In this document: positions 2,525 to 47,101 of the stretch, piece after piece
How positions within the stretch are numbered: position 1 is the first letter of the stretch
Layout of the letters: each line of letters begins with the position of its first letter
Assembly: GCF_917563915.1 (NCBI RefSeq)
Contig: NZ_CAKJTI010000009.1
Location: forward strand, 1 to 64,000
Direction of reading: 5' to 3'
Origin: Bacillus rhizoplanae
Lineage (GTDB): Bacteria > Bacillota > Bacilli > Bacillales > Bacillaceae_G
Length of the DNA stretch: 64,000 nt
The notes under the pieces: model-generated
The model's database searches: none
What the model saw: only the letters and a program-made list of their open reading frames with translations
Told to the model about the DNA's origin: nothing
Made by a program: the position numbers and the translations under genes

Positions 2525-2555
2525 GAGTAAGTTCAAAATGAACTTACTCTTTTTT
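2524..2555 (+). terminator. terminator of the transglycosylase gene
   Basis: GAGTAAGTTCA and TGAACTTACTC form a near-perfect stem followed by a T run. Confidence 0.85.
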
Positions 2556-2709: not shown

Positions 2710-2868
2710 GTGAATGAATTTAAGCGAAGTGAGACACAATATTGTCACATTTGTTTAATTTTGCTTATTTTGTGAGCAACTTCAATGGACTGTTTATATG
2801 AGAATTGATATCATGAATAATGTATATAAGCATCATACAAAGAATAAAAACATTAAAGAGGAATGTGT

Positions 2869-3966: not shown

Positions 3967-4122
3967 TTTTCCCATATTAACGGGCAGTAAGACCCCCACC
4001 TCAAGATTTAGAGAGCAGCGAGGAAGATAGGTGGGGGATAACTACCCGTAAAAGCCCGATTGGTTCAACTAACCATCAGTGGGGGATGAAAAAAAACCCC
4101 ACTGATGGAAGTTTCACTTTAT
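3967..4122 (+). repeat. bcr1 repeat, full length
   Basis: A 156-bp bcr1 copy. The left end is diverged (TTTTCCCATATTAACGGGC) and the right end is intact (GTTTCACTTTAT). Its internal blocks match the copy at 2553. Confidence 0.93.
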
Positions 4123-4300
4123 AAAAAGAAAGGTGGTAAAACTGTTACTGAAAAGAGGCGGAACCTCAATAAGCAGCATATGTTGTATGAATTTAATCAA
4201 CCAACATATATATACCGATGGCTAGGCAAAAAATTAAGCCTATGGGGAACGACACAAACCAAAGTGACGAGATTGGGTTTGTAGAAGCAAGAAAAGTCTA
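4123..4300 (+). other. unexplained leader upstream of queG with overlapping short open frames
   Basis: The 178 bp between bcr1 and queG hold two overlapping open frames. One has no start and runs to the stop at 4281. The other could start at the GTG near 4132 (32 codons). The pairing segments ACAAACC and GGTTTGT (about 4254-4281) could form a hairpin without a T run. I recognise neither a protein family nor a riboswitch. It could be a small-peptide leader, a gene remnant or an RNA element. Confidence 0.3.
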
Positions 4301-17739: not shown

Positions 17740-17895
17740 ATTATCCCGCTATTCGTGGGCATTAATCCCCCCACCTGAAGATTGAGAGAAACGAAGAAGA
17801 TAGGTGGGGAATAACTGCCCGTAAAAGCCCGATTGGTGAGAGCTTTCCATCAGTGGGGATGAAGAAAACCCCCACTGATGGAAGTTTCACTTTAT
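17740..17895 (+). repeat. bcr1 repeat, full length (GAGAGC variant)
   Basis: A full bcr1 copy in which the central GGTTCAACTAACC stem is replaced by GGTGAGAGCTTTCC, a second sequence type also seen at 33250 and 37947. It ends GTTTCACTTTAT. Confidence 0.92.
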
Positions 17896-17967
17896 TTTGT
17901 ATTTATTTTTGTTATCACTTTTGATAATATAATCATAAGATATAGTAAAGGAAGTAGGTTTTTATAT

Positions 17968-20422: not shown

Positions 20423-20502
20423 TTTAAAATAAAGTCGCGATGTTTATAAAAAAGATGCGATGTTTAAAATAAAGTCGCGGCGTTTATAAAAATGTTGCGA
20501 TG
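20423..20502 (+). repeat. four tandem 20-bp imperfect repeats
   Basis: Units at 20423, 20443, 20463 and 20483 follow the pattern TTTAAAATAAAGTCGCGATG with substitutions. Units 1 and 3 are most alike, as are 2 and 4, which suggests duplication of a 40-bp pair. No gene covers it, and a hairpin terminator follows immediately. Confidence 0.85.
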
Positions 20503-20848: not shown

Positions 20849-23800
20849 TCAGATTCCAGCCCAAACATCTTTTCCGTATCGTCCTTCACGTTGTAAATGA
20901 TCCAACCAATTTCTTGCCTCTTGTTCACTGACTCCATGAATTTCTTGATATGCGTGACAAAGATTATCTTCTACATCCGGAGCCATTCGACTTCCATCAC
21001 CACATATATAAAGGTGGGCACCGTTATCTAATAACGAAATTAAATTAGCTCCATCTTGTTTCATTAAATGCTGTACATATGTTTTTGGATGTCCTTCCAA
21101 GCGAGAAAAAGCTGTGTGTAAAGATATTAAGCCATCTTTTTCATCTTTTTCTAGTTCTGTACAATAGAGATAATCTTTTTCAGGATGACGACAACCGAAA
21201 TACAGATGCGCTTCCCCTAAGTTAACACCTTTGTTCTTTTGGACACGACGCGTTTGTAAGAACCCACGGAATGGTGCAACTCCAGTGCCTGGTCCAACCA
21301 TGATAATTGGTGTTTTTGGATCTTCAGGTAACTGAAACCTTGATTCTGGAGTTCGAATAAAACAAGTAATCTCATCTTCATTGTGACACTGAGCTAAATA
21401 ATTAGAAGCGACACCTTTATATTCTCCTTGTCCACTCCATGCAGGTCCACTAACAACACCGACCGTAATACTTAGACGATCCTGTGCAACAAGTGGAGAG
21501 CTTGAAATAGAATAGTAACGCGGTTTGAGCGCAGGGAGAAGTTCTAAAAAGCGTTCAAACGGGATTTCACACGCTTCATACTTTTCAAGAAGATCTAACA
21601 TTGAAATGCGTTTCTTTAGTATTTGGTCTTGATAAACTCCATCTTCCAATAATGCTTCCAATTCGTATTTATGAGGAGGACAAACTGTAAATGTTGCCAA
21701 TTCCCGTATTTGTGCTCGAGTTGCCGATTCCTGAACCTCAACACTATAGCTAAGAAGGTCAAATAAACTAACAGGACGGTCCAAAGGAAGATGAACTGTA
21801 CTACGTCCACTTGTACTCAGTATGACTTGATCCTTCCCGTTTAATCCAAATCGTTTTAAAATTCGGTTGACATTTTTTCGGCTGTTACTTGGCAGCACTC
21901 CAAGATGGTCGCCTTCCTGATAAGTAACTCCTTCCGGCAAGGCTATCTCAATATGTCGAGTGCCCCGTTCACTTTCAGCTGACTGAAGCTCCTGGCTAGC
22001 AATCACCGTTGCATAAACAGCTTTGTTATTTTGAGCGATCGGATTAGCAGGAGGACCTGAAATCAACTGAACGGAAAGCGATGATTGATGAGACAATGTT
22101 TCGGTTCCCTCTTTCACCTTTAGGCCAAAAGCATTCGAGACATCCTTCCACATGTTCTCTTGCCATTGAGCAAAATCATTCTCGAAATCTCCTCCAGCGT
22201 CAGCCTCTCCTCTTACGGTAAACCTTATGGCACCTTTCTGTTCAAGCTCTTTGTCAATAAATTTCGGAACACTCTGGTAAGTATTCGCCCAATTTCGATC
22301 TCCGCAACCAAAAACTGCATACCTGATCCCTGTACATCCCTCTGTGTCTGATTGCTCCAGCCATTTTACGAACTGAGCGGCATTCTCAGGAGGTTGACCA
22401 TTATATGAAGAAGTTACAATGAGTACCGCACCTTCTTTAGGTAACTTTCCGATATAATCGTTCAATGTTCCCACATCGCTCTGGAAACCCAGTAACCTTG
22501 CATGGTCTGCGAGCTTCCTAGCAAACTCTTCCGCTCTGCCTAAGTTTGAACCATACAATATAAGCAGAGGTAAGTTTTCAGCACCTTCAATTACTTCTTG
22601 TTTTAAATATTGCGAAGCCAGTTTCTTCTTTTCTTCATTTTCCTTCTCCTTCTCATCTGCCAACGGAGGATTCAGTAAAGATGCGACTTGCTTCCCTTCC
22701 CTTAATTTAATTCTAATTCTTAAATTTTCTGGTTTTATGGTCAACGTTTGCTTAATCTTCAACTGATAGTTTTCATAATCAATTAATTCAAACTTTTGAA
22801 GAATCATTCCAAGTACCAGCGTAGCTTCATAAAGTGCGAACTGCATACCAATACAAGCACGTTGACCATTCCCAAATGGCTTATATGCATGATTTGGTAC
22901 TTTGGAAGGGTCTGCGAAACGTTCCGGACGGAATTCTTCTGCATCTTCTCCCCACACTTCTTTATCCCGATGAAGGGCGGGAAGAAGCACGGTCAAACCT
23001 TCACCTTTTTTCACATGATACTGTCCGCCGATTATAGTATCCTCCTTTGGATACACATCAAAAGATGGAGCGGTCGGCCATAACCGTATGGCCTCGTTTA
23101 GAATCATGCGAATGTATTTGAGGTTTAGCACTTGTTTATAAGATGGAGTGGAATCACCGAGGACCTGATCCACTTCTTCGTATGCTTTCTTCAGAACTTC
23201 CGGATGTTTCAGTAAAAAATAAGTCGTAAAGGATAATAAACCACTTGTTGTTTCATGCCCAGCAATTAAGAAGGTAATAATTTGGTATCGGATATTTTCA
23301 TCATCCAACACTTCCCCGGTCTCGGGGTCTTTACTGTTTAACATGCGGGCCAGCAGATCTATCTCTCCATTATTTCCATTAACCTTCCGCGCTTTAATAA
23401 TTTTATCTACCAACGAAAACATGCTTTGTATATCATCTTGGAATTGTCTGTTTTTTCTAATCATCAGAGTATCCATGCCCTTCGAGCGGGCAATTTTATG
23501 CATAGCTTCGTCAAGTGCACGTACCATGCTGTCGATAAATGGATCATGTTTTTCTTTATAAAAACTATTAAATCGGTAGTTAAAACCACAAAGACCGATC
23601 GTATCCAAAGTAAGGCGGGTCATGTCTCCCGGTACATCGATATGATCACTATCGTGATTCAACCGAGCCCATTTCTGAATCAGCTGCGAAGCGATGTCTA
23701 ACATCATGGTATGATATCCCTTCATGGCTTGTTGGCTGAATGTTGGCAGCAATATATTATGGGCTTTTCGCCAGTTTGGCTCCGATGTTTTACTCGTAAA

Positions 23801-24070
23801 CAGACCGTCCCCCGTAAATTCGCGTACATGCACCATATCATTTGCAACATGTTTATCAAAACGATTGATATCACAGACTTCAGTTACCAGTTTGTGTTCA
23901 GAGATACATATTGTTTTAAAACCTGGAGCAGTCAACCGAAATATTGGTCCATATTCTTTCGCTATCTCACAAAAAGAAATAGTAGGTTGACTCATGTCGA
24001 ATAAAGGGTAGTTGCCGAGTGGTCCATATGTTTTGGGTTGTGGAATCCCGCCTGTCTGTTCTTCTCTCAT
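20849..24070 (-). CDS. bifunctional cytochrome P450 / NADPH-P450 reductase (CYP102A, P450 BM3 type)
   Basis: A 1073-residue self-sufficient fatty-acid hydroxylase that uses NADPH and O2 to hydroxylate medium and long-chain fatty acids near the omega end. The N-terminal P450 domain (1-460) carries GHETTS (I helix), the E-x-x-R of the K helix, and the haem-Cys motif [10 protein letters not shown] near residue 400. A diflavin reductase follows with an FMN flavodoxin domain ([13 protein letters not shown]), an FAD domain (RYYSISSSP) and an NADPH site ([14 protein letters not shown]). The opening resembles CYP102A enzymes ([12 protein letters not shown]), and many internal stretches read closer to B. 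subtilis YrhJ/CYP102A3. Codons look richer in G and C than in neighbouring genes, suggesting transfer. It lies 61 nt after a TetR gene, mirroring B. subtilis fatR-yrhJ. Confidence 0.96.
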
Positions 24071-27856: not shown

Positions 27857-27904
27857 AGAGGAGATAAGGGATCAAAACAATGATGAAATCTTATCTCTTT
27901 TTTA
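27857..27904 (+). terminator. terminator after the metallophosphatase gene
   Basis: GAGATAAG and CTTATCTC pair across a 21-nt loop and are followed by TTTTTT. Confidence 0.7.
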
Positions 27905-27940: not shown

Positions 27941-28131
27941 CATTATTTGTTTAATTCCATTACTCCATTTTTTCCGTTTATAAGAACCCGGATTATTGCA
28001 GCCACAATTTCTACCATTTTTTCATCTCTTATCTTTCCTTGTTTTTCGTTTCATTTCTTACTTTTAGTATAGTGAAAAGCTCATTTCGTAACTATTGAAT
28101 TAAGTAGCGTAAGGATTACGTTGTTGTAAAG
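27941..28131. repeat. 191-bp paralogous segment, copy A
   Basis: This segment aligns over its whole length with 34938-35128. Shared blocks include CATTATTTG, TTCATCTCTTATCT, TCCTTGTTTTT, TTTCATTTCTTACTTTTAG, TATAGT and GAACTATTGAATTA-type sequence. It lies directly upstream of the ABC-exporter operon. Confidence 0.85.
27943..28017 (-). pseudogene. micro-ORF copy A (24 codons, frameshifted start)
   Basis: The minus-strand frame from the ATG at 28017 encodes a 24-residue peptide ending N-G-K-N-G-V-M-E-L-N-K, closely similar to the peptide of copy B. The upstream ATG at 28025, which keeps the GGAAAG-type ribosome site, is out of frame because of a 1-nt deletion (ATG AAA AAA TGG TAG). The copy is probably broken or starts internally. 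Confidence 0.45.
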
Positions 28132-28250
28132 AATGAGGTTTAAAGGAATGAAACTAGCAAATTAAAAAATTTATTTTTATTAAGGGAATTTTAAGGAATG
28201 GATTCGATAATAAGTCTTACTTAATGAAGCATAGGAAAGGAGAAACAATT

Positions 28251-29210
28251 TTGAAAAAGTGGATTAGTATTTTAGGGATTCTTACCATTGTACTTGGTGC
28301 AGGGGCTTGGTATGTATTTAAGGATAAATCGCAACCAGTGATGAATCAAGCAGTAAGTGTGGCAGTTCAAAAAGGGAAACTAGATGTGAAAGTAAAGGGT
28401 TCTGGTTCTACTCAATCTATGACAAATGAAGATATTACAGCAGACTCAAATAAAGTAGTTGAGTCAGTATTAGTCTCAGCAAATGATGTAGTGAAAAAAG
28501 GACAGGAGTTAATTACATTTACAGATGGGAGTGATTCAATTGTAGCACCAGCTGATGGAACGATTACATCTATACCAGTGCAAGCTGGAGATCGTGTAAC
28601 GAGTGGGAAGGCTGTTGCTCATATTACAAACTACGGTGATTTAGAAACAGTTATTCAAGTTGATGAATTAGATATTCCAAAAGTACAGGTTGGACAAAGT
28701 GTAACATTAAAAGTGAATTCATTTCCAGATACAACCTATACAGGAAAGGTAACAGATGTAGCGAAGGAAGGAACAGTTTCTAATGGTGTATCCTCCTTTA
28801 ATGTAACGATTCATATTGATAATCCAAAAGATGTGAAAATTGGAATGACAACAGAAGCTAGCATTTTGACTGATAGTAAAGACAATGTTCTATATGTTCC
28901 AGTAGAAGCAGTTCATACAAGAGGAGATCAAAAATTTGTTTTTGTTCAATCCTCAGCATCTTCTTCTAATGGAAAGACAAATATGCAGCAAAAAGTTGTT
29001 AAAGCAGGTATTCATAATGAAGATTCCGTAGAAATTACGGAAGGGTTGCAAGAGGGAGAACATATTCAATTGCCTATGGCTGCACAAGGAAATGGAGCGA
29101 ATAACTACAATAATAAACAAAGAGGCTTCATGATGTCTTCAGGTGGAGGCATGGGAGGAGGCTTCGGCGGCGGAGGTATGAATAGAAATAGAGCTGGAGG
29201 GAGAGGGTGA
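28251..29210 (+). CDS. membrane-fusion subunit of an ABC exporter (MacA/YknX-like)
   Basis: A 319-residue periplasmic-adaptor-type protein that links an ABC permease to the cell exterior. It has an N-terminal membrane anchor (ISILGILTIVLGAGAWYVF), a biotin/lipoyl-like hybrid domain (IVAPADGTITSIPVQAGDRV), a beta-barrel region and a C-terminal MP-like domain. A Gly/Met/Asn-rich tail (residues about 290-319) is unusual. The start is the TTG at 28251, 8 nt after AAAGGAG; an ATG at 28224 lies upstream of that site. It is followed directly by the ATPase gene, giving the YknX-YknY-YknZ order. Substrate unknown; peptides or antimicrobials are typical of the family. Confidence 0.88.
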   Translation: MKKWISILGILTIVLGAGAWYVFKDKSQPVMNQAVSVAVQKGKLDVKVKGSGSTQSMTNEDITADSNKVVESVLVSANDVVKKGQELITFTDGSDSIVAPADGTITSIPVQAGDRVTSGKAVAHITNYGDLETVIQVDELDIPKVQVGQSVTLKVNSFPDTTYTGKVTDVAKEGTVSNGVSSFNVTIHIDNPKDVKIGMTTEASILTDSKDNVLYVPVEAVHTRGDQKFVFVQSSASSSNGKTNMQQKVVKAGIHNEDSVEITEGLQEGEHIQLPMAAQGNGANNYNNKQRGFMMSSGGGMGGGFGGGGMNRNRAGGRG

Positions 29211-29212
29211 GA

Positions 29213-29947
29213 ATGAAACCGATTATTGAGATTCAGAATATGACCAAATCATATGAGATGGGCGGCGAAATTGTACGTGCACTCGATAATGTTTCTCTTA
29301 CAATCTATGAAGGTGATTTTCTCTCCATTATTGGCCCTTCTGGATCAGGAAAATCTACGTTTATGAATATGATTGGTTGCTTAGACCGTCCAGATGATGG
29401 ACAGTATCTATTGGATGGAGATGCAGTAGATAAACTGAATGATAATCAACTAGCCACAATTCGAAACGAAAAAATTGGTTTTATCTTTCAAAACTTTAAT
29501 TTGCTAACGAAATTAACAGCAATTGAAAACGTTGAACTTCCGCTTTTATATCGGGGAATAAGTACAAAAGAAAGAACAAATACCGCGTATAGCTGTTTAG
29601 AAAAAGTTGGGTTGCAAGGGAGAGCTCATCATTTGCCTAGTCAATTGTCAGGTGGACAGCAGCAGCGCGTTGCAATTGCACGCGCTTTAGTTGGAAACCC
29701 ACCAATCTTATTAGCCGATGAGCCGACAGGAGCATTAGATAGCAAAACAAGTGAAGAAATTATTGGGGTAATGAAAGAGCTGCATGTGCAGGGACATACA
29801 ATTATTTTAATTACGCACGATTTAGAAGTAGCAAAACAAGCAAACCGAATTGTTCGTATACAAGATGGACAATTGTTTGAAAGTAGAGGTGAGTACATTG
29901 GGGCTAATACAATCCATCAAAATGGCAATGCGCAGTATCAAAGGTAA
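29213..29947 (+). CDS. ABC transporter ATP-binding protein (MacB/YknY-like)
   Basis: A 244-residue cytoplasmic ATPase of the LolD/MacB group. It has Walker A GPSGSGKS (about residue 45), Q-loop FQNFNLL, signature LSGGQQQR, Walker B ILLADEPTGALD and a switch His in LITHD. The start is the ATG at 29213 within GGAGGGAGAGGG-led sequence, 2 nt after the membrane-fusion gene. Its 3' end overlaps the permease gene by 50 nt, so translation is likely coupled. Confidence 0.93.
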   Translation: MKPIIEIQNMTKSYEMGGEIVRALDNVSLTIYEGDFLSIIGPSGSGKSTFMNMIGCLDRPDDGQYLLDGDAVDKLNDNQLATIRNEKIGFIFQNFNLLTKLTAIENVELPLLYRGISTKERTNTAYSCLEKVGLQGRAHHLPSQLSGGQQQRVAIARALVGNPPILLADEPTGALDSKTSEEIIGVMKELHVQGHTIILITHDLEVAKQANRIVRIQDGQLFESRGEYIGANTIHQNGNAQYQR

Positions 29948-31067
29948 TAAACTACGAGCATTTTTAACGATGCTAGGCATTATTATTGGTGTTTCGTCTG
30001 TTATTGTACTTGTCTCAATTGGTCAAGGCTCAAGTCAAGCTGTAACAAATCAAATTAATAGTTTAGGTACGAATTTGTTAACGATAAATATGATGGGATC
30101 TGACGCGATAAAACTTACTGAACAAGATATTGCAAAGTTTCAAAAGATTGATGGGATAAAAGAAATGTCTCCCGTTGTTTCGGGACGAGTTACTGTAAAA
30201 AATGGGACGCTTTCAACACAAGTATCACTTACTGGAACAAATAGTTCTTATCAGCAAGTACGCGATATGAAAATCAACGAAGGTCGTTTCTTATCAGATA
30301 TGGATGTAGAATATAGACAAAAAGTCATTGTACTTGGTGCGAATACAGCACAAAATTTATTTGGATTTGAAAATCCAGTTGGAAAAGATGTACAAGTAAA
30401 TGGTAGCTCTTTTAAAATAGTAGGTGTACTTGCCTCAAAAGGTGGTTCTATGGGACAAAGCGGTGATGATGTTATTATTATGCCGCTGAGTACAGCGCAG
30501 CGAATTGTAAAGAATACCAGTATACAGACAGTGTATGTACAAGTAAGCAGTGAGGAAAAACTAAATACTGTCATGGCACAAATTGAAAATAAATTAGCTG
30601 GAATGTTCCCGAATAAGCAAGATAACTACAGCGTATTTAATCAAAAAGATTTAGTAGATACGATGAGTTCGGTAACAGGTACAATGACGATGATGCTTGG
30701 AGGAATTGCTTGCATTTCTTTATTAGTTGGCGGGATCGGAATTATGAATATTATGCTTGTATCTGTTTCAGAACGAACGAAAGAAATTGGCATTCGTAAA
30801 GCAATTGGGGCGAAAAGAAAAGATATTTTACTACAATTTCTGATTGAAGCAGTAGTACTAAGTTCACTTGGAGGATTAATCGGAATGGGAATAGGGCTCT
30901 TGGTTGCAAAGATTCTTTCCGTGGCAACAGGTATGACGATTGCTTATTCTGTTCCTGTTATATTGCTTGCATTTTTATTTTCCTTATTAGTAGGAGTTGG
31001 ATTTGGGGTATTTCCAGCCAATAAAGCATCGAAACTGCATCCTATTCAAGCACTTCGATATGAATAG
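29898..31067 (+). CDS. ABC transporter permease, FtsX/MacB type
   Basis: A 389-residue permease. One membrane helix near the N-terminus is followed by a large extracytoplasmic MacB-PCD domain. Three helices follow in the C-terminal FtsX domain, with the conserved GGIGIMNIMLVSVSERTKEI and GIRKAIGAKRKDIL. The best start is the TTG at 29898, 7 nt after AGAGGTG, which gives M-G-L-I-Q-S-I-K. The open frame continues further upstream. It completes a three-gene exporter and is followed by a hairpin and a decayed bcr1 before the two-component genes. Confidence 0.9.
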   Translation: MGLIQSIKMAMRSIKGNKLRAFLTMLGIIIGVSSVIVLVSIGQGSSQAVTNQINSLGTNLLTINMMGSDAIKLTEQDIAKFQKIDGIKEMSPVVSGRVTVKNGTLSTQVSLTGTNSSYQQVRDMKINEGRFLSDMDVEYRQKVIVLGANTAQNLFGFENPVGKDVQVNGSSFKIVGVLASKGGSMGQSGDDVIIMPLSTAQRIVKNTSIQTVYVQVSSEEKLNTVMAQIENKLAGMFPNKQDNYSVFNQKDLVDTMSSVTGTMTMMLGGIACISLLVGGIGIMNIMLVSVSERTKEIGIRKAIGAKRKDILLQFLIEAVVLSSLGGLIGMGIGLLVAKILSVATGMTIAYSVPVILLAFLFSLLVGVGFGVFPANKASKLHPIQALRYE

Positions 31068-31101
31068 AACATGTTATCGGCAGTATTCTTGCCTAGAAAT
31101 T

Positions 31102-31133
31102 GAAGCGATCGCATAATGCGGCCGCTTTCTTTT
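31102..31133 (+). terminator. terminator of the exporter genes
   Basis: AAGCG(A)TCGC and GCGGCCGCTT pair and are followed by a CTTTT run. The stem is imperfect. Confidence 0.6.
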
Positions 31134-31139
31134 GCTAGT

Positions 31140-31287
31140 ATAAAGTGAAATTTCCAATAGCGATTTTTTCCCCTTACTGATTAGCATCATCAATTGGACT
31201 TTTACGGACAGTTATCGTCCACCTATCTTCCTTGTTTTTTAGAATTACGAGGTGAAAGTCTTATTGTTCGTGAATAACGGAAGAAAA
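31140..31287 (-). repeat. decayed bcr1 copy between exporter and response-regulator genes
   Basis: It aligns along its length with minus-oriented bcr1: ATAAAGTGAAATTTCC, CAATTGGACTTTTACGGACA, GTTATCGTCCACCTATCTTC, GAGGTGAAAGTCTTATTG and a terminal GGAAGAAA in place of GGATAAA. Many substitutions mark it as an old insertion. Its end touches the ribosome site of the next gene. Confidence 0.7.
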
Positions 31288-31308
31288 AATAAGAGGTGAA
31301 GAAGTGAG

Positions 31309-31980
31309 ATGCGTTTATTAGTTGTGGAAGATCATCCTCCATTATTGGAGTCAATTACACAAATTTTACGAAATGAATTTGAAGTAGATACGGCAAAAAA
31401 TGGTGAGGAAGGATTATTTCTAGCATTGCAAAATATTTATGATGCAATTCTTCTAGATGTGATGCTTCCAGAGATGGATGGATTTGAAGTAATTCAGCGG
31501 ATTCGAAGTAAAAACATTCAAACGCCTGTTTTATTCCTTACTGCAAAAGACTCTTTGGAAGATCGGGTAAAAGGGTTGGACTTTGGCGGAGATGATTATT
31601 TAGTGAAACCGTTTCAGGCGCCAGAACTTCAAGCGAGAATTCGTGCTTTATTAAGAAGGAGCGGGAGCTTAACAACCAATCAAACGATTCAGTACCGTGG
31701 TATTGAGTTGTTTGGAAAAGAGAAAGATATTCAAGTGGATGAGGTACCTATAAAATTAACGTTAAAGCAATATGAACTATTAGAATATCTGATTCAAAAT
31801 AGTGGGAAGATTTTAATGCGTGAACAAATTTTTGATAGAGTATGGGGATTTAATTCTGATACAACAGTAGCCATTGTAGAGGTATATGTGCATCATTTGC
31901 GAAAGAAGCTGGAGCCATTTGGCTATCATAAAGATATTCAAACTATACGTGGTATTGGATATATCTTAAAAGAACAATGA
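31309..31980 (+). CDS. OmpR-family response regulator
   Basis: A 223-residue two-domain regulator. The receiver has acidic residues E7 and D8, phospho-acceptor Asp50 (LLDVMLPEMDG), a Thr in LFLTAKD and Lys in LVKPF. The C-terminal winged helix ends in the typical TIRGIGYIL. The ribosome site GAGGTGAAG precedes the ATG. Its stop overlaps the kinase start (ATGA), so the pair is translationally coupled. The adjacent ABC exporter is the likely target, an inference from position. Confidence 0.93.
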   Translation: MRLLVVEDHPPLLESITQILRNEFEVDTAKNGEEGLFLALQNIYDAILLDVMLPEMDGFEVIQRIRSKNIQTPVLFLTAKDSLEDRVKGLDFGGDDYLVKPFQAPELQARIRALLRRSGSLTTNQTIQYRGIELFGKEKDIQVDEVPIKLTLKQYELLEYLIQNSGKILMREQIFDRVWGFNSDTTVAIVEVYVHHLRKKLEPFGYHKDIQTIRGIGYILKEQ

Positions 31981-33314
31981 GACAACATAGCATGTTTCAA
32001 AAGACACGCATTCAACTTACGATTTTGAATTCATTAGTATTTATTGTGTTAATTGGTATGTTAGGAAGTGTTATTTATTCATATACACATAAACGGCTAT
32101 ACGAAGGAATAGATGATTCAATAGATAGATTTATTAAGAAACAAGAAAAAGAAGACAAGTCTATTCCAAGTCATTTTGATTTTAACAAAGACCTGCATAT
32201 TGGCGATTCTCGGATTATCGTTTTAAAATGGGATGAAAAGAATCAACTGGTAGGGATGGAACCACGATTTCTAGATCCAAGCTTTTTTGAGAGAAATCAA
32301 TCTAAATTATTTCCTAAAACATTTGGAGAACGGCAGGATATAGAGGTAGAAGGTGTAAACTTTCGGATGATTGCAGCTCAAGGAAATACGGATTTAGGGA
32401 AAGTCACGTTTCAAGTATTGAGGGAAATAAACCCTGAAAAGGAAATGCTGCATACACTTCTACTTATTCTTGTAATTGGATGCAGTATAGGAAGTATATG
32501 TGCGGTGGGAATTGGCTTTTTTTTAGCTGGTAGGGCGCTTGTACCAATTAAGAATGCTTGGCATAAACAGCAGCAGTTTGTTTCAGATGCTTCACATGAA
32601 TTACGAACTCCTTTAGCAGTGATTCAATCTAAAGCGGATGTATTGTTTCAATCTCCTACTGCAACAATAGAAGATAAGGCGATGGATATTTCAACTATAT
32701 CAAAGGAATGCCGACGCTTATCCAAACTAGTTGCAAACTTACTAACATTAGCACGTTCTGATTCAGATCAAATTGAAATGGACAAGAAAACTTTTGCATT
32801 AGATAAATTGCTAAGTGAAATTGTAAATCCTTATTCAGAAATTGCTTTGTATGAAGAAAAAACAATTACGTTAGATGTCGTTCCTTCTATTTTGTTTATG
32901 GGAGATAAAGAGCGTATTCATCAATTAATTGTAATTTTATTAGATAATGCGATGAAGTATACAAATGCAGGTGGAAGTATTAATGTATCTTGCTCTGAAA
33001 CAACAAATGGGATTGTAATCCAAGTAAAAGATGATGGTGTTGGCATCGTTGAAGAAGATATCCCAAAAATTTTCGATCGTTTTTATCAAGGTGATAAAGC
33101 AAGGGCGGCATCAAATGGAGCTGGATTAGGTCTGTCTATTGCAACCTGGATTGTTGAGAAGCATTACGGGAAAATAAAAGTGTATAGCAAAATTGGAGAA
33201 GGTACTTGTTTTGAAATTGTATTTCCAAAGAATCAAAAAGTACGAAATATTTATCCCGCATTAACGGGCAGTAAGACCCCACCCTCAAGATTGAGAGAGA
33301 AGCGAAGAAGATAG
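31977..33314 (+). CDS. sensor histidine kinase with a bcr1-encoded C-terminal tail
   Basis: A 445-residue membrane kinase. Two membrane helices (residues about 13-35 and 160-190) bracket an extracytoplasmic sensor loop of about 120 residues. The HisKA domain carries His207 in SDASHELRTPL, and the ATPase domain has an N box (LLDNAMKYT) and G boxes (DDGVGI, GAGLGLSI). Family homology ends near FEIVFPKNQKVRN. The last 20 or so residues (N-I-Y-P-A-L-T-G-S-K-T-P-P-S and on) are translated from the bcr1 element beginning at 33250, which supplies the stop. Coupled to the upstream response regulator. Confidence 0.92.
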   Translation: MRQHSMFQKTRIQLTILNSLVFIVLIGMLGSVIYSYTHKRLYEGIDDSIDRFIKKQEKEDKSIPSHFDFNKDLHIGDSRIIVLKWDEKNQLVGMEPRFLDPSFFERNQSKLFPKTFGERQDIEVEGVNFRMIAAQGNTDLGKVTFQVLREINPEKEMLHTLLLILVIGCSIGSICAVGIGFFLAGRALVPIKNAWHKQQQFVSDASHELRTPLAVIQSKADVLFQSPTATIEDKAMDISTISKECRRLSKLVANLLTLARSDSDQIEMDKKTFALDKLLSEIVNPYSEIALYEEKTITLDVVPSILFMGDKERIHQLIVILLDNAMKYTNAGGSINVSCSETTNGIVIQVKDDGVGIVEEDIPKIFDRFYQGDKARAASNGAGLGLSIATWIVEKHYGKIKVYSKIGEGTCFEIVFPKNQKVRNIYPALTGSKTPPSRLREKRRR

Positions 33315-33406
33315 GTGGGGGATAACTGCCCGTAAAAGCCCGATTGGTGAGAGCTTTCCATCAGTGGGGGATGAAAAAAACCCCACTGATGGAAGTTTCA
33401 CTTTAT
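33250..33406 (+). repeat. bcr1 repeat, full length, overlapping a kinase gene end
   Basis: A 157-bp element bounded by TTTAT at both ends. It has the GAGAGC central variant. Its first 65 bp are read as the C-terminus of the histidine kinase. Confidence 0.95.
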
Positions 33407-33426
33407 ATGAAAGAAAAATAGGCGAT

Positions 33427-33467
33427 TAAAAAGACGATCTTGTTTTATACAGGGTCGTCTTTTTTTA
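33427..33467 (+). terminator. terminator after the two-component operon
   Basis: AAAAAGACGA and TCGTCTTTTTTT pair across a loop of about 17 nt. It probably belonged to the kinase gene before bcr1 came between them. Confidence 0.8.
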
Positions 33468-33556
33468 AGGGAAAGTTAAGAAATTTTTTTCATAATCAAT
33501 ATATACCTCATGATGAATTACAAATGATAAATGGTGAAAAAAGAAGGGAGAACAAA

Positions 33557-33994
33557 ATGAAAAGAATGAGAAAAATTCATTTTTGGATTGGGTTAATTGC
33601 TTCATTATTTATTTTTATTGAATCTGCAACAGGAATATATATGTATTTTAGTGGAAAAGGTCCCGGTGAAAGAATAGAAGGGGCTGCTAATTTTCAAGAA
33701 CGAGGCTTTGGCAGAAATGGTGATACAGGAAATGTACAAAATGGACAAGACATACAAGCGGGGAATTCTGATTTTAATCAGGGAAGTGCAGCGTCAAATA
33801 GACAATTTTTTCAAGATAGAAGTAACGGGGGATTCAATTCTTTATCAAGATTAGTTAGGGAGTTGCATACAGGAGTGATTGGATTAATCGGTTCTATTGC
33901 AATGCTTATTTTAACAGGGACTGGATTATGTATATCTTTTGTAATGTTGCGAGCAAAATGGAGAACAAAGCGTCAAAAAGAAATAACAGTTTAA
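33557..33994 (+). CDS. PepSY-associated membrane protein
   Basis: A 145-residue protein with a PepSY-associated helix at the N-terminus (RKIHFWIGLIASLFIFIESATGIYMYF). A hydrophilic Gly/Asn/Gln-rich loop follows (residues 34-90), then RLVRELHTGVIGLIGSIAMLILTGTGL as a second helix and a basic tail. Full PepSY-TM proteins have four helices; this is a short two-helix form. The histidines in K-I-H and L-H-T-G resemble haem- or metal-binding positions of the family. The start is the ATG at 33557 behind AAGGGAG. It lies 32 nt ahead of the repeat lipoprotein and is likely co-transcribed with it. Confidence 0.78.
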   Translation: MKRMRKIHFWIGLIASLFIFIESATGIYMYFSGKGPGERIEGAANFQERGFGRNGDTGNVQNGQDIQAGNSDFNQGSAASNRQFFQDRSNGGFNSLSRLVRELHTGVIGLIGSIAMLILTGTGLCISFVMLRAKWRTKRQKEITV

Positions 33995-34026
33995 GTGATA
34001 GTTATGAGGAAGGGAGGAAGTGAAAG

Positions 34027-34857
34027 ATGGTTAGAAAAAATACGTTTGGTCTACTAATTGTTGGAGTATTAAGTCTCGGTGTAATGGGAGGGGCTTCTGC
34101 TTGTACAAATAAGGATGCAAATGAATGGCAATTATCTCAACCTAGTAGTTCACAAGTAAATGGTGGGACTGTACATGCTGCATATACAGAAGATAAAGCG
34201 CAGAATTTAGGAATTGAAACAGAAGGAAAAGAGCTACTTACACTTGAGAAGGAAATTCATGAAACGGAAGTAGAGAAAGAGGCAAATCAGCTGGGGGTTT
34301 CCACAGAAGGAAAAGATGTTGGAACACTTTCTGAAGAAATATATGAAGCAAAGGTTAAAAAAGAGGCGGAAAAACTTGGAATACCAGTAGAGGGAAAAGA
34401 AATTGTAGATTTAATAGCAGAAATTAATAAGATAAAAATAAAAAGTGAAGCAGAAAAATTAGGAGTTTCCACAGAAGGGAAAGAGATTGCCACGATAGCT
34501 GAAGAGCTTTATGGAACAAAAGTAAAAAACGAAGCAAAGCAACTTGGTATTTCAGAAAAGGGAAAAAATATGGAAGCGTTAGCGAAAGAAGTATATGAAA
34601 TGAAAATTCAAACAGAAGCGCAAAACCTTCATATTGATCTGTATGGAAAAGATATTTATCAAGTGCTACAAGAAATTAATGAGCAAAAAGTTTTGCAAGT
34701 TGCAAAAGAACTTGGGATAGATGTAACGGATAAGGATACACAGAAGCTTACAGAGGAAATTGAAAAACAACAACCAGATCGAGTGCAGGACCTTCATTTT
34801 TCACCTTGGATACAAACAGATGCAGATGCATTTTATTATTATTTAACAAGTGGCTGA
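34027..34857 (+). CDS. exported protein with seven 28-residue repeats
   Basis: A 276-residue protein. A signal sequence (FGLLIVGVLSLGVMGGASAC) is followed by Cys26, consistent with a lipoprotein or SPase I cleavage. From residue about 55 it consists of tandem 28-residue units of the form E-A-x-x-L-G-I-x-x-E-G-K-E-I-x-x-L-x-x-E-I-x-x-x-K-V-K-x: six complete units and a partial seventh. Each looks like a helix, turn and helix with high charge. A C-terminal segment (FSPWIQTDADAFYYYLTSG) follows. I do not recognise a named family. It sits with the PepSY-like protein, exporter and two-component genes, so a cell-surface sensing or stress role is a guess. Confidence 0.75.
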   Translation: MVRKNTFGLLIVGVLSLGVMGGASACTNKDANEWQLSQPSSSQVNGGTVHAAYTEDKAQNLGIETEGKELLTLEKEIHETEVEKEANQLGVSTEGKDVGTLSEEIYEAKVKKEAEKLGIPVEGKEIVDLIAEINKIKIKSEAEKLGVSTEGKEIATIAEELYGTKVKNEAKQLGISEKGKNMEALAKEVYEMKIQTEAQNLHIDLYGKDIYQVLQEINEQKVLQVAKELGIDVTDKDTQKLTEEIEKQQPDRVQDLHFSPWIQTDADAFYYYLTSG

Positions 34858-34937
34858 TGTTCTGAAAAGGGAAAAGAAATGAGAAGAAAAAGGAGTTTTC
34901 ATATGATTATATGGGTGATAGTCATTATTCCTTGTCT

Positions 34938-35128
34938 CATTATTTGCTTAACTCCATTGCAATATTTTTATCATTCACTAAAACTAGGAATACTGCTACT
35001 ACAACTTCCATTATTTTTTTCATCTCTTATCTCTCCTTGTTTTTGGTTTCATTTCTTACTTTTAGTATAGTAAAAAGCTTATTTTGGAACTATTGAATTA
35101 GGTGACGTAAGAATTACAGTTTTGTAAG
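34938..35128. repeat. 191-bp paralogous segment, copy B
   Basis: It aligns with 27941-28131 over the same length with scattered substitutions and few indels. It lies at the far end of the exporter/two-component/lipoprotein cassette. Confidence 0.85.
34940..35023 (-). CDS. micro-ORF copy B: 27-residue hydrophobic peptide
   Basis: The minus-strand frame begins M-K-K-I-M-E-V-V-V-A-V-F-L-V-L-V and ends N-D-K-N-I-A-M-E-L-S-K. GGAGAG lies 7 nt before the ATG, and TATACT about 40 nt upstream could be a -10 element. Copy A encodes an aligned peptide (E, V, A, V-L, N, K-N, M-E-L and K conserved). Similarity at protein level despite nucleotide divergence supports coding. Possible roles include a membrane-active peptide or type I toxin, but none is shown. 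Confidence 0.5.
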   Translation of the reverse strand: MKKIMEVVVAVFLVLVNDKNIAMELSK

Positions 35129-35135
35129 GGAAATG

Positions 35136-35669
35136 CTATGGTTTGCCGCCTTCTTCTACATGTATAACAATCTGTCCATATAATCTTTCCCCAATGTATG
35201 CATTTAGTAGCCATAAGCCGGAAGAAGGGAGTAACATACTAGAGGGAAAACTTGTGATATCTTTTGTAATCTCTTGTGGTGTTGTCCAAACATTGCCTGT
35301 TATCTCATCTTGAAAAAAGACAGGAACTGGTTTCGTTGAGCCTTGTTTTAGTGCAATGACAGTTAGTTTTCCAGAGGGGATATTTGGACCCAGAAAGAAC
35401 CACATATATTTATTTGGTTGATTAGCAATCCAAGTAGTATCTGCAATTGCAACCTTATCTTCTATACCTTTTACAGATATTTTATCGTGCTCAAATGATG
35501 GACTTTCCTCCCAATTGACATCCTTAAGGATGCTAAGGTGAAAGAAAGAAGGAATATTATTTTGTGGTTGTATCGTTTCAATTATTTTTGGGGAAGTAGA
35601 TTTTTTTACTGTAGTTGTACAGCCAGCGATGAGACAGGAGAGAAGTAGCACAGTTCCAAGTTTTTTCAT
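35136..35669 (-). CDS. uncharacterised lipoprotein
   Basis: A 177-residue exported lipoprotein with signal KKLGTVLLLSCLIAGC (lipobox L-I-A-G-C, Cys17). The mature part has a beta-rich look with conserved-seeming phrases WFFLGPNIPSGKLTVIALKQ and SGLWLLNAYIGERLYGQIVIHV, suggestive of an immunoglobulin-like or DUF4871-like domain. I cannot name a function. AGGAG lies about 10 nt before the ATG. It precedes micro-ORF B on the same strand by about 110 nt and may be co-transcribed with it. Confidence 0.7.
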   Translation of the reverse strand: MKKLGTVLLLSCLIAGCTTTVKKSTSPKIIETIQPQNNIPSFFHLSILKDVNWEESPSFEHDKISVKGIEDKVAIADTTWIANQPNKYMWFFLGPNIPSGKLTVIALKQGSTKPVPVFFQDEITGNVWTTPQEITKDITSFPSSMLLPSSGLWLLNAYIGERLYGQIVIHVEEGGKP

Positions 35670-35776: not shown

Positions 35777-36292
35777 TTATTCGTTTTCTTCATGTAAAAA
35801 CAATACCATGTGTTCTTCGTCCCAATATTGATCGTTATATTTTAACGAACGTTCTTGTACGCCAAATGTTTTAAAGCCTAATGATTCATAGAGTTTTTTA
35901 GCGCCTTCATTGCCAACGACAACATCAAGCATAAGTTGTTCTACTTCTAATTCTTTTGCTTTTTCAATTGCTGCCTGCATAAGTGCCTTACCAGCACCAA
36001 GGCCACGCGCTTTTGGAGAGACATAAACAGCACCGATCTTTGCTTTATGTTCTTGCTTTAAAAATGATTTCGTTTCCAGAGTTGCAACACCGATTAATTC
36101 ACTATCTTTAAAAGCACCAAGTGTGTAATTTTCATTTTGAGATAATATTTCTGCTTTATATTCAACAGGGTCTTCCTTGTTAATGATATCTTCGTAAGAG
36201 GAACTGAACGCTTCTGGATTTTGCTTTAATCCTTCAACGCGAAGTGCTAAATAAATTTCTGCATCCTTTTTTGTCAATACACGAATTTCCAA
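35777..36292 (-). CDS. GNAT-family N-acetyltransferase, paralogue 1
   Basis: A 171-residue GNAT acetyltransferase. The acetyl-CoA loop is in VYVSPKARGLGAGKALMQAA (Q/R-x-x-G-x-G/A pattern), followed by VVGNEGAKKLYESLGF typical of the fold's end. It starts with TTG at 36292, 7-8 nt after GGTG. A second gene about 3.3 kb downstream (39639-40145) is very similar, so the two arose by duplication. The acceptor substrate is unknown. Confidence 0.88.
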   Translation of the reverse strand: MEIRVLTKKDAEIYLALRVEGLKQNPEAFSSSYEDIINKEDPVEYKAEILSQNENYTLGAFKDSELIGVATLETKSFLKQEHKAKIGAVYVSPKARGLGAGKALMQAAIEKAKELEVEQLMLDVVVGNEGAKKLYESLGFKTFGVQERSLKYNDQYWDEEHMVLFLHEENE

Positions 36293-36422: not shown

Positions 36423-37799
36423 CTATTGAATTGGTAATTCTATCATAAATATAGTTCCAATTCCAACTTCACTTGTTACATGTATAGAACCACCATGTAA
36501 TTCTATGATTTCTTTTGCAACAGCTAAGCCAATACCTTTTCCACCAGTTGCTCGCGTTCGGGATTTATCGACCCGGTAGAAGCGTTCAAAAATATGTGGT
36601 AAGTCTTCACCTGGAATTCCCTCTCCTTCATCTTGCACTTGTATAAGAAAAGTATGCGCCTTTTTTAATACTCGTACTGTAATTTGAGAATCTTCATGAG
36701 AATGTTGGTGTGCATTATGTAACAAATTCAGCATGACTTGCTCCATGCGGCGTTCGTCTATGCAGACATATAAATCTTCTGGGCAATATAAAGAGATGCC
36801 TATTTTCTTTTTTTGAAGAGATGGCTTTATTTTTTCAACCATACGCTCTACAAATGGTAGCAGTGAAACAGGTTGCTTTTTTATAGCAAATTGATGTTGT
36901 TCAAGTTGTGCAAGTTCAAATAAATCTTGTACGAGTTCGGTAATATTTTCTGTTTCTTCTTCAATAATTTGTAAATATTCTTCCCGTTCTTCTTTAGATA
37001 AAGACGTTCTTTTTGCAACTTTTGTATATCCTTTTACATATGTGAGCGGGGTTAATAATTCATGTGCAACACTTGCGAGAAACTCATTTCGTTCCTTTTT
37101 CATATAGGTTAGCTCACTAGAAAGCTGTTCAATTGTTTTTGCTAAGCTTCCTAATTCGTCCTTACTCTTAATACCTAATGTAATCGGTTCATTTTGCTTC
37201 ATCATTTTTTCGGTTGCTCGCTTCATTTTGATAAGTGGATTTGTAATAACTCTTGAAAATAAAAACACTAAAATTGTTGTGAGAGCCGCTGTCAATGCAC
37301 CGACGGTAACGAACTGTTTCGTTAAGCGGAAAATCATTTCTTTTATAGAAGCAGTTTCTAAAAACATATGGACATAGCCAATTACTACCCCATATTTTGT
37401 AATAGGACTGACTGTTGAAATATATTTTGATGCTTTCCAGCGATCTTCTGTTACCATTCCGTCTCTAGGAATATACTCAATCTTTTGTTCAAGTTGTTTG
37501 TGGATGTCTTCTGTAATGGGATCGGAAGAAGCTAAAATATTACCTGCTGCATTTGTTATGACGAGTTTCGTATGAGAAGGGGCGTTAGATTCCATCGCCG
37601 CGACATGTTCAATGGCTCGTTCGCTATAGCGTTTTTCAATAATATCACGATACCAATTTCCTTTTTCCAGTAAGGCTGTAGTTTCTTCGTCTACACGCAT
37701 TTGTGCCAGTGTTGTATGAAAGGATACAAATAATATGGATTCAATGCAAAGAGATAATAATAAAAAGTATGTACCAAGTTTTATAGAAAGTTTATTCAT
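36423..37799 (-). CDS. sensor histidine kinase
   Basis: A 458-residue membrane kinase with helices at residues about 7-30 and 160-185 around an extracytoplasmic domain. A HAMP linker and a HisKA domain with SVAHELLTPLTYVKG follow. Note Leu where most kinases have Arg (H-E-L-R-T-P-L). The ATPase domain has NLLHNAHQHS, DEGEGIP and GKGIGLAVAKEI. Its response regulator is encoded upstream on the same strand, separated by about 310 bp that contain two bcr1 elements (37814-38103), so an operon appears to have been split. Confidence 0.9.
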   Translation of the reverse strand: MNKLSIKLGTYFLLLSLCIESILFVSFHTTLAQMRVDEETTALLEKGNWYRDIIEKRYSERAIEHVAAMESNAPSHTKLVITNAAGNILASSDPITEDIHKQLEQKIEYIPRDGMVTEDRWKASKYISTVSPITKYGVVIGYVHMFLETASIKEMIFRLTKQFVTVGALTAALTTILVFLFSRVITNPLIKMKRATEKMMKQNEPITLGIKSKDELGSLAKTIEQLSSELTYMKKERNEFLASVAHELLTPLTYVKGYTKVAKRTSLSKEEREEYLQIIEEETENITELVQDLFELAQLEQHQFAIKKQPVSLLPFVERMVEKIKPSLQKKKIGISLYCPEDLYVCIDERRMEQVMLNLLHNAHQHSHEDSQITVRVLKKAHTFLIQVQDEGEGIPGEDLPHIFERFYRVDKSRTRATGGKGIGLAVAKEIIELHGGSIHVTSEVGIGTIFMIELPIQ

Positions 37800-37813
37800 T
37801 ATGATTCACAACC

Positions 37814-37951
37814 TTTTTCCTGTACTAGCAGGCAGTAAGACTCCCGCCATAAATTTCTGAAGAAATAATGAAATTCGGTAGAAGAAAAACTGCTGGCATA
37901 TGCCTGAGTGGTTCCAATAAAGGTTCTTCACTAGTGGAAGTTTCATTTTAT
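37814..37951 (+). repeat. decayed bcr1 copy
   Basis: It is recognisable from AGGCAGTAAGACTCCCGCC, CTGCTGGCATATGCCTGAGTGG and AGTGGAAGTTTCATTTTAT, with many differences from the others. It shares its right TTTAT with the next copy. Confidence 0.75.
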
Positions 37952-38103
37952 CCCGCATTAACGGGCAGTAAGATCCCCACCTTAAGATTGAGAGAAAAGC
38001 GAAGAAGCTAGGTGGGGGATAACTGCCCGTAAAAGCCCAATTGGTGAGAGCTTTCCATCAGTGCGGGATGAAGAACCCCCCACTGATGGAAGTTTCACTT
38101 TAT
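37947..38103 (+). repeat. bcr1 repeat, full length, in tandem
   Basis: TTTATCCCGCATTAACGGGC to GTTTCACTTTAT, GAGAGC variant. It abuts the decayed copy at 37814-37951 head to tail. Confidence 0.94.
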
Positions 38104-38111
38104 TTTTACGA

Positions 38112-38783
38112 TTAGTTACCTTTCCATTTGTAGCCGATTTTATAAACGGTTTCCAGGTAATCTTCGATAGGGAATCCTGCTTTTCGAAGCTTTTCGCGTA
38201 TATTACGAATGTGAGAATCAACGGTACGATATTCAATATCTGTTTGAAATCCCCATATTTTTTCGATAAGTTCATCACGGCTATAAGCACGGTTTATATT
38301 TTGTAAAAAGAGTCCAAGTAATGAAAATTCAATTGGCGTAAGAGAGAGTTTTTCATCGTAGACAGTCACGGTATGTCTCGTTTTATCCCAGTCAATTCCG
38401 TTAAAGCTTATGAATCCTTCTTTCTTCGTACGACGCAATACAGCTTCAATACGAGCAATTAATACTTGTTCATCAAACGGTTTTGTAATATAGTCGTCAG
38501 CGCCTAAGGTGAGACCTTTTACCATGTCATAATTTTGATTACGTGCTGTTAGCATAATTATGGGTACGCTACTTATTTGCCGAATTTGAAAGCAAGTCTC
38601 CCAGCCGTCCATTTTTGGCATCATCACGTCTAATAAGATAAGATCAAACTCCTTTTGTTGAACGAGTTCAAGTGCTTCTTGTCCTGAAGTTGCCTTTATG
38701 CAAAAATGTCCGCGCGGACTTAAAAATAAATCTAATAAGCGCAGCATGCGTTCTTCATCATCTACTAATAATAGTTTTGCCAT
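38112..38783 (-). CDS. OmpR-family response regulator
   Basis: A 223-residue regulator. The receiver has D8 and D9, phospho-acceptor Asp52 (LLDVMMPKMDG) and Lys in ITKPFDEQ. The winged helix ends in TVYKIGYKWKG. The start is the ATG at 38783, 9 nt after GAGGTG; a GTG at 38795 lies too close to that site. It is the first gene of a former operon with the kinase at 36423-37799. A diverged bcr1 lies just upstream (38817), within 35 nt of the start, so the native promoter may have been displaced. Confidence 0.92.
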   Translation of the reverse strand: MAKLLLVDDEERMLRLLDLFLSPRGHFCIKATSGQEALELVQQKEFDLILLDVMMPKMDGWETCFQIRQISSVPIIMLTARNQNYDMVKGLTLGADDYITKPFDEQVLIARIEAVLRRTKKEGFISFNGIDWDKTRHTVTVYDEKLSLTPIEFSLLGLFLQNINRAYSRDELIEKIWGFQTDIEYRTVDSHIRNIREKLRKAGFPIEDYLETVYKIGYKWKGN

Positions 38784-38816
38784 AATGATGTACACCTCGA
38801 GTTTCCAGTATTTATG

Positions 38817-39638: not shown

Positions 39639-40145
39639 CTAAGCATTTAAAAATAAAACCATATGCTCTTCATCCCAATATTGTCCGTTATATTTTAAAC
39701 CACGTTCTTGTACGCCATATGTTTGAAAACCAAGTGATTCGTATAGTTTCTTTGCCGGTTCATTTCCGACAACAACATCAAGCATGATTTGTTCTATATC
39801 TAACCTTGGTGCATTTTCAATGATTGTTTCAATTAATGCTCTTCCAGCACCAAGACCACGTGCCTTCGGAGAAACATATACAGAGCCAATTTTTGCTTTA
39901 TGCTCTTGTTTAATAAATGGTTTAATTTCAAGTGTGGCCATGCCAATTAATTCATCGTCTTTAAAAGCGCCTATTGTAAATTTTTCAGGATTATCTAATC
40001 GTTTTGCCATCGCAGTAACAGGATTTTCTTGTTTCATAACATCTTCATAAGAGGAACTAAATGCTTCAGGGTTTTGAGTTAACCCTTCTATGCCAAGCTG
40101 TAAATATATACTTGCATCTTCTTTTGTTAAGACACGAATGTTCAT
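39639..40145 (-). CDS. GNAT-family N-acetyltransferase, paralogue 2
   Basis: A 168-residue GNAT acetyltransferase highly similar to the product of 35777-36292. Shared stretches include NPEAFSSSYED, KQEHKAKIG, VYVSPKARGLGAG and YWDEEHMVLFL. The acetyl-CoA loop is intact. AGGAGG lies 8 nt before the ATG. The pair brackets the two-component genes and probably arose by segmental duplication. Different early residues (N-P-V-T-A-M-A-K against D-P-V-E-Y-K-A-E) suggest divergence of the acceptor site. Confidence 0.88.
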   Translation of the reverse strand: MNIRVLTKEDASIYLQLGIEGLTQNPEAFSSSYEDVMKQENPVTAMAKRLDNPEKFTIGAFKDDELIGMATLEIKPFIKQEHKAKIGSVYVSPKARGLGAGRALIETIIENAPRLDIEQIMLDVVVGNEPAKKLYESLGFQTYGVQERGLKYNGQYWDEEHMVLFLNA

Positions 40146-46915: not shown

Positions 46916-47057
46916 CGGGCAGTAAGACTCCCACCTCAAGATTGAAAAAGAAGCGAAGAAGATAGGTGGGAGATAACTGCCCGTAAAAGCCCGATTGGTT
47001 CAACTAACCATCGGTGGGGGATGAAGAAAATCCCCACCGATGGAAGTTTCACTTTAT
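46901..47057 (+). repeat. bcr1 repeat, full length, overlapping a gene end
   Basis: 157 bp, TTTAT at both ends, GGTTCAACTAACC variant. Its first 15 bases encode the last residues and stop of the phosphodiesterase. Confidence 0.95.
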
Positions 47058-47060
47058 GGA

Positions 47061-47101
47061 AAAATAGGCTGCTAGCTAAATACTAGTAGCCTATTTTTTT
47101 G
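47061..47101 (+). terminator. terminator after the phosphodiesterase gene
   Basis: AAATAGGCTGCTAG and CTAGTAGCCTATTT form a stem followed by seven T, just beyond the bcr1 insertion. Confidence 0.88.

What the first reader, a model, noticed from the sequence alone, without database searches (positions are those of the whole stretch)
27941..35128. Two diverged 191-bp segments bracket an exporter/two-component/repeat-lipoprotein cassette, each with a hydrophobic micro-ORF
27941-28131 and 34938-35128 align end to end at equal length, 7.0 kb apart and in the same orientation. On the minus strand both encode a peptide of 24-27 residues with matching positions (E, V, A, V-L, N, K-N, M-E-L, K). Copy B has GGAGAG 7 nt before its ATG; copy A has a 1-nt deletion that breaks the long start. 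Conservation of the peptide despite nucleotide change suggests it was under selection. The repeats may mark duplication or insertion of the cassette, and the peptide could be membrane-active, possibly a type I toxin-like or regulatory peptide.
Basis: partly seen in the sequence, partly recalled or inferred. Interest (0 to 1): 0.72.

Follow-up and report, generated by a model that had tools for sequence, protein, structure and literature searches.

The report
Duplicated short segment with micro-ORF
Two similar 191-base stretches sit on either side of an exporter and sensor gene cluster, and each may carry a very small gene, but with only two copies and no close relatives available to compare, this looks like a modest local duplication rather than a demonstrated toxin or mobile element.

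Summary
In detail: 27941-28131 and 34938-35128 are 80% identical over 190 columns in the same orientation, with no third copy in the window.

The peptide frame alone of six shows milder replacements than chance (P 0.007 and 0.011; next best 0.16), and dN/dS is 0.31/0.93 over 22 codons, but the third-position excess is not significant. The best conserved part is the leader and ribosome-binding site (15 of 114 columns differ, against 24 of 73 in the peptide part). Copy A's long start is frameshifted.

The peptides match no family model. Copy A's hydropathy is below a transmembrane threshold, and neither segment has terminal inverted repeats. The bracketed genes look like a separate two-component regulon: two exact TTAAGGGAANNTTAAG boxes lie outside both segments.

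No close relative was reached (best PrkA match printed 92%), so the decisive comparison could not be made. Best reading: a duplicated small peptide gene with its leader, copy B intact, copy A decaying.

The parts
27941..28131 (-). Copy A of the duplicated segment
   Evidence: 80% identity to copy B, E 1.5e-44; alignment
34938..35128 (-). Copy B of the duplicated segment
34940..35023 (-). Micro-ORF of copy B, 27 aa plus stop, intact from its ATG
   Evidence: frame test
27943..28017 (-). Micro-ORF of copy A, 24 aa plus stop, from the inner ATG; the long start is out of frame
35031..35036 (-). Shine-Dalgarno-like GGAGAG (within AAGGAGAG) 7 nt before the copy B ATG; copy A has AAGGAAAG at the same place
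   Evidence: sequence
35064..35069 (-). TATACT, -10-like hexamer of copy B, no recognisable -35
   Evidence: by eye; the promoter scan reports no site here
28066..28071 (-). TATACT, -10-like hexamer of copy A, no recognisable -35
   Evidence: by eye; the promoter scan finds none in the region
27858..27900 (.). Stem-loop: probable terminator of the upstream phosphoesterase gene on +, weaker hairpin for a copy A transcript on -
   Evidence: own scan and folding; the standard scan with short loops reports none
28224..31067 (+). Bracketed genes 1: membrane fusion protein, ATPase, MacB-like permease
   Evidence: Pfam and NCBIfam
31309..33314 (+). Bracketed genes 2: OmpR-type response regulator and histidine kinase
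33440..34857 (+). Bracketed genes 3: PepSY_TM protein and repeat-containing probable lipoprotein
   Evidence: Pfam PF03929 for the first; no Pfam family above its cut-off for the second
28180..28195 (+). TTAAGGGAANNTTAAG box upstream of the exporter genes
33465..33480 (+). TTAAGGGAANNTTAAG box upstream of the PepSY/lipoprotein genes

Best explanation
The two segments are an old duplication of one small transcription unit on the minus strand: a short upstream region with a -10-like hexamer, an A-rich unstructured leader with a good ribosome-binding site, and a peptide gene of 24-27 codons. Shown: the duplication, the shared open frame and stop, and the uneven conservation. Inferred: that it is transcribed and translated, that copy B is the working copy, and that copy A, with its long start out of frame, is decaying or uses the inner start at lower efficiency. 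The peptide most likely makes a short hydrophobic or amphipathic segment that associates peripherally with the membrane and acts as a small regulator (inference only). The genes between the copies form a separate two-component-controlled export and envelope regulon, and the copies bracket it either by chance of where the duplicate landed or through an old recombination event.
For: 80% identity at E 1.5e-44. The aligned similarity ends 2 nt past the stop codon in both copies and does not continue at the 5' end. Only the peptide frame of six shows conservative replacement (P 0.0066 and 0.011). NG86 dN 0.31, dS 0.93 over 22 codons. Both frames are open, with a chance of staying open of 0.59 or 0.37. 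The leader, ribosome-binding site and start are better conserved than the rest. The genes between have their own shared box outside both copies.
Against: Only two sequences and 22 codons. Third-position excess not significant (P 0.24) and hydropathy preservation P 0.06. No promoter-like site was found in copy A's region, and neither of the two in copy B's region lies at its TATACT. No homologue in the libraries and collections searched (the weak matches are short). Copy A's long start is broken.
Confidence: 0.5

Rival explanations
1. A non-coding intergenic duplicate with no present function; the better conserved middle reflects partial gene conversion or chance, and the peptide frame is a coincidence.
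For: Conservation is strongest outside the peptide (15 of 114 against 24 of 73 columns; quietest 74-column window P 0.008). No third copy. Third-position excess not significant. Copy A is frameshifted.
Against: The peptide frame alone of six passes the replacement test, and the homology ends at the shared stop codon.
Confidence: 0.27
2. The conserved part is the RNA: a regulatory small RNA or leader, with the peptide incidental.
For: The presumed transcribed leader is better conserved than the peptide part.
Against: No Rfam match in the window at gathering thresholds beyond 5S rRNA and tRNAs. Folding is no better than shuffles (z 0.41 and -0.75).
Confidence: 0.1
3. Direct repeats left by integration of the exporter/two-component/lipoprotein genes through recombination at one resident copy, or by a duplication that trapped them.
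For: The copies are direct repeats at the two edges of the gene cluster. A lipoprotein/two-component/MacB-type neighbourhood occurs elsewhere without them (L073).
Against: No terminal inverted repeats. Loci L064-L073 lack the segments, so they are not part of the system. No empty site could be examined.
Confidence: 0.08
4. A type I toxin-like membrane peptide, controlled in copy B by antisense read-through from the convergent lipoprotein gene.
For: Short hydrophobic peptide (copy B 19-residue hydropathy 1.69). The standard scan found no terminator in 34780-35180, between the convergent lipoprotein and DUF4871 genes.
Against: Copy A hydropathy 1.28 with an Arg inside the run. No family match. 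No antisense RNA gene identified. A wider scan shows weak hairpins in and around that interval.
Confidence: 0.05

Closest known systems
Interspersed intergenic repeats bcr1-bcr18 of the Bacillus cereus group
   Same: Short intergenic repeated segments; 84 of 165 and 62 of 155 copies in two strains are reported as part of an mRNA (passages of PMC3446304 seen).
   Different: The sequences of bcr1-bcr18 were not available (the defining paper is not held), so identity is untested. Here there are two copies in 64 kb and no terminal inverted repeats, whereas bcr1-bcr3 are called MITE-like.
[quoted passage not shown]
   Same: Very short hydrophobic peptide with a good ribosome-binding site.
   Different: No transmembrane helix in copy A by simple hydropathy, no antitoxin RNA shown, no family match (passages of PMC6562991).
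Ordinary Bacillus gene starts (ribosome-binding site, MKK, hydrophobic N-terminus)
   Same: Five of the 12 weak matches in other genomes are gene starts of this kind (L036, L038, L040, L043, L046).
   Different: Those frames stay open through the context read; here both copies stop at the same codon after 24-27 residues.

Membership tests
Type I toxin (B. subtilis TxpA/BsrG/BsrE kind) | Peptide under 60 aa with an alpha-helical transmembrane domain | tested here: inconclusive
   Length met. Best 19-residue Kyte-Doolittle mean 1.69 in copy B (borderline), 1.28 in copy A (below the usual 1.6, threshold recalled). Feature as in passages of PMC6562991.
Type I toxin (B. subtilis TxpA/BsrG/BsrE kind) | Matches a known family model | tested here: not met
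   0 families for each of 3 peptides (the two micro-ORF peptides and a 55-aa + strand ORF of copy B) in Pfam, PHROGs and NCBIfam at E up to 10
Type I toxin (B. subtilis TxpA/BsrG/BsrE kind) | Antisense RNA antitoxin | not testable with these tools
   Needs RNA data. The scan finds 2 promoter-like sites near copy B against 1.8 expected.
MITE-like or other mobile repeat | Terminal inverted repeats | tested here: not met
   The inverted repeats found (9-14 nt) lie inside the segments or have one arm outside; none joins the two ends
MITE-like or other mobile repeat | Many copies per genome | tested here: inconclusive
   Two copies in 64 kb. No genome is held for the window.
bcr1-bcr18 repeats | Sequence identity to a bcr family | not testable with these tools
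   Defining paper not held; no Rfam match at the segments
Protein-coding small gene | Conserved frame with milder replacements than chance | tested here: inconclusive
   P 0.0066 and 0.011 in the peptide frame, other frames at least 0.16; third-position excess P 0.24; dN/dS 0.31/0.93 on 22 codons

The most novel reading that the evidence does not exclude
A previously undescribed small-peptide gene whose two diverged copies flank a two-component export regulon, with copy B's mRNA facing read-through transcription from the regulon's last gene, so that induction of the regulon would silence the peptide by antisense. (That it is undescribed rests only on the library and collection searches named in this report.)
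Probability: 0.06. Interest if true: 0.5.

Novelty: new member of a known kind. Interest (0 to 1): 0.2.

Why it matters
If the peptide is made, it would add a small, probably unannotated peptide gene beside a two-component export regulon in a Bacillus-like genome. If not, it is a reminder that a short shared frame in a two-copy repeat is weak evidence for a gene. Either outcome is of local interest.

Tried and rejected
Third or diverged copies in the window: profile search with two sequences, none beyond noise. Homologues by DNA: copy B against plasmids and phages, none; viral contigs by two exact patterns, none. Copy B in 150 genomes of one order gave 12 genomes with one short weak match each, read: five are starts of longer genes with MKK and a hydrophobic N-terminus (L036, L038, L040, L043, L046), two more are gene starts without it (L039, L044), and four look like chance matches (L035, L037, L042, L045). 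The twelfth, L041, shares 22 bases and can be read as a short hydrophobic frame beginning MKKIMEV; it has no clear ribosome-binding site by eye and was not followed up. Copy A in 397 genomes of that order gave 0 at E 1e-5 (only 2 candidates per genome were scored). Copy B in the 14 genomes of another order gave one genome with six 25-base matches. The tool itself warns that an empty answer shows little where no positive genome is held, and the PrkA yardstick agrees: best identity 92% among the matches printed (371 of 397 genomes matched; not all matches are printed).

Homologues by peptide: tblastn in plasmids and phages, none; family libraries, none. Neighbouring proteins as a way to near relatives: lipoprotein and DUF4871 protein in viral contigs, none (in 61, 11 stretches matched a pattern but none was confirmed); DUF4871 family in 4 genomes, 0, and 0 in the 14 control genomes; DUF4871 protein in plasmids, 2 records at 33% and 29%; phosphoesterase in 24 genomes, 14 matched, best 56%. 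The cassette DNA in plasmids gave 144 records, none covering 80% of it, the best 31% at 69% identity.

Structured RNA: not supported. Mobile element with inverted ends: not supported. A plus-strand 55-aa ORF over copy B (34903-35070) has a good ribosome-binding site by eye, but its frame has a stop in copy A and no conservative replacement. A DUF3963 annotation of 21 codons near a similar exporter on a plasmid (L064) does not resemble the peptide by eye. Synteny of the phosphoesterase with the cassette: I printed rows for 9 of the 20 loci; none shows the fusion protein, permease, PepSY protein or lipoprotein, though L002 has an ATPase relative (62%), L003 ATPases and a regulator/kinase pair (about 22-32%), and L013 an ATPase (34%). 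Defence-family models for four proteins of the region: none. Solved-structure sequences for the lipoprotein: none. Literature: six searches; passages read in three papers; nothing on this segment was seen, and I make no claim that it is not in print.

Full report
What is there. They align over 190 columns at 80% identity, in the same orientation, with starts 6,997 nt apart. A profile made from the two finds both at E below 1e-57 and nothing else in the 64 kb better than E 0.42. Their 5' flanks are unrelated (shuffle P 0.93 global, 0.99 local). Their 3' flanks are not significantly similar over 60 nt (P 0.10); over 100 nt one of two scores is nominally low (global P 0.0075, local P 0.23), which I treat as unproven. 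The aligned similarity runs from about 106 nt upstream of the ATG to 2 nt past the shared stop codon. Copy A lies between a phosphoesterase gene and the exporter genes; copy B lies between the convergent lipoprotein and DUF4871 genes, 7 nt from the end of the DUF4871 gene.

The micro-ORF. Copy B reads 27 codons from an ATG with GGAGAG 7 nt upstream. In copy A the long start is out of frame and only an inner ATG opens the shared frame, 24 codons. To test coding, the 21 substitutions in the shared 22 codons were placed at random on matching bases. The observed replacements are milder than chance in the peptide frame only: P 0.0066 (B to A) and 0.011 (A to B), against 0.16 or more in the other five frames (first run P 0.0068). 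NG86 gives dN 0.31 and dS 0.93; of 22 codons 8 are identical, 4 synonymous and 10 changed. The excess of third-position changes, 9 of 21, is not significant (P 0.24), and hydropathy preservation is marginal (P 0.06). Corrected for six frames this is suggestive, not decisive.

Where the conservation is. Columns 2-115, through the start codon and the A-run behind it, differ at 15 of 114; columns 116-188 differ at 24 of 73 (Fisher P 0.0016 for a split chosen after seeing the data). The quietest 74-column window has 6 differences (shuffle P 0.008). The better conserved part is thus the upstream region, leader and ribosome-binding site. It is unstructured as RNA together with the ORF (z 0.41 and -0.75) and has no Rfam match. 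A TATACT hexamer stands in both copies by eye, but the promoter scan finds no site in copy A's region and, of two in copy B's region, none there. A short palindrome, GTAATNCTTAC, is kept in both (2 found, 0.18 expected), but since the copies are related by descent that says little.

Is it a toxin or a mobile element? The two peptides have no match in Pfam, PHROGs or NCBIfam at E up to 10. The best 19-residue hydropathy is 1.69 for copy B and 1.28 for copy A, which has an Arg inside its hydrophobic run; a transmembrane helix, which the review of B. subtilis type I toxins names as typical (passages of PMC6562991), is doubtful. No antitoxin RNA could be identified. The segments have no terminal inverted repeats.

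The genes between. They encode a MacA/MacB-type exporter, an OmpR-type response regulator and kinase, a PepSY_TM protein and a repeat-containing probable lipoprotein. An exact TTAAGGGAANNTTAAG box stands upstream of the exporter genes and upstream of the PepSY/lipoprotein genes and nowhere else in the window at up to one mismatch (2 found, 0.06 expected, 0 of 100 shuffles with 2), as expected for binding sites of the response regulator (inference). Both boxes lie outside the 191-nt segments. Relatives of the lipoprotein were found in 13 of 398 genomes of the class. I read the neighbourhoods of nine of these 13 (L065-L073): four have regulator and kinase genes next to the lipoprotein (L065, L068, L070, L073; in most the pair is closer to the window's second two-component system than to the bracketed one), one of the four a MacB-type exporter as well (L073), and one more an ATPase relative beside it (L067). 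None of the nine, nor the plasmid locus L064, has the segments by blastn at E 0.01 or a two-sequence profile at E 0.1. The segments are therefore not an intrinsic part of that system.

What could not be tested. No genome is held for the window. The named genome collection returned 20 loci for the neighbouring phosphoesterase with best identity 74%, and the best PrkA match printed for 397 genomes of one order is 92%, so I infer that the window's nearest relatives were not among the sequences reached. The absence of the segment from 397 genomes, plasmids, phages and viral contigs therefore carries little weight.

Verdict. A real, old, two-copy local duplication, most likely of a small peptide gene with its leader, copy B intact and copy A decaying (0.5); a functionless non-coding duplicate is the main rival (0.27). 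The toxin and cassette-insertion readings are not supported by the present evidence.

Noticed in passing
window 28180-28195 and 33465-33480: Exact TTAAGGGAANNTTAAG box (11-nt direct-repeat spacing) upstream of the exporter genes and of the PepSY/lipoprotein genes; 2 found against 0.06 expected. Probable response-regulator sites.
   Followed up: partly
window 2554-2720, 3967-4133, 17740-17906, 33251-33417, 37948-38114, 46902-47068 and shorter pieces: A dense interspersed repeat of about 167 nt; its 23-nt core occurs 13 times in 64 kb at up to one mismatch. The core is present in 73 of 397 genomes of one order, up to 80 copies in one, and a 76% match to the repeat lies on a Pseudalkalibacillus plasmid.
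   Followed up: partly
window 33251-33314: The last 21 residues and the stop of the histidine kinase 31977-33314 are encoded by a copy of that interspersed repeat.
   Followed up: partly
window 35791-36090 and 39644-39943: Two GNAT acetyltransferase genes, 76% identical over 300 nt, flank a second two-component system (36423-38795): another local duplication around a sensor pair.
   Followed up: partly
window 20423-20502: Three overlapping 40-nt copies spaced 20 nt apart, a short tandem array.
   Followed up: no
window 34858-35135: No standard terminator between the convergent lipoprotein and DUF4871 genes; only weak hairpins in a wider scan.
   Followed up: partly
window 20849-24070: Single-chain cytochrome P450-reductase fusion of 1073 aa (P450, flavodoxin, FAD and NAD domains); resembles CYP102 enzymes from recall.
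   Followed up: no
   Followed up: partly
   Followed up: no
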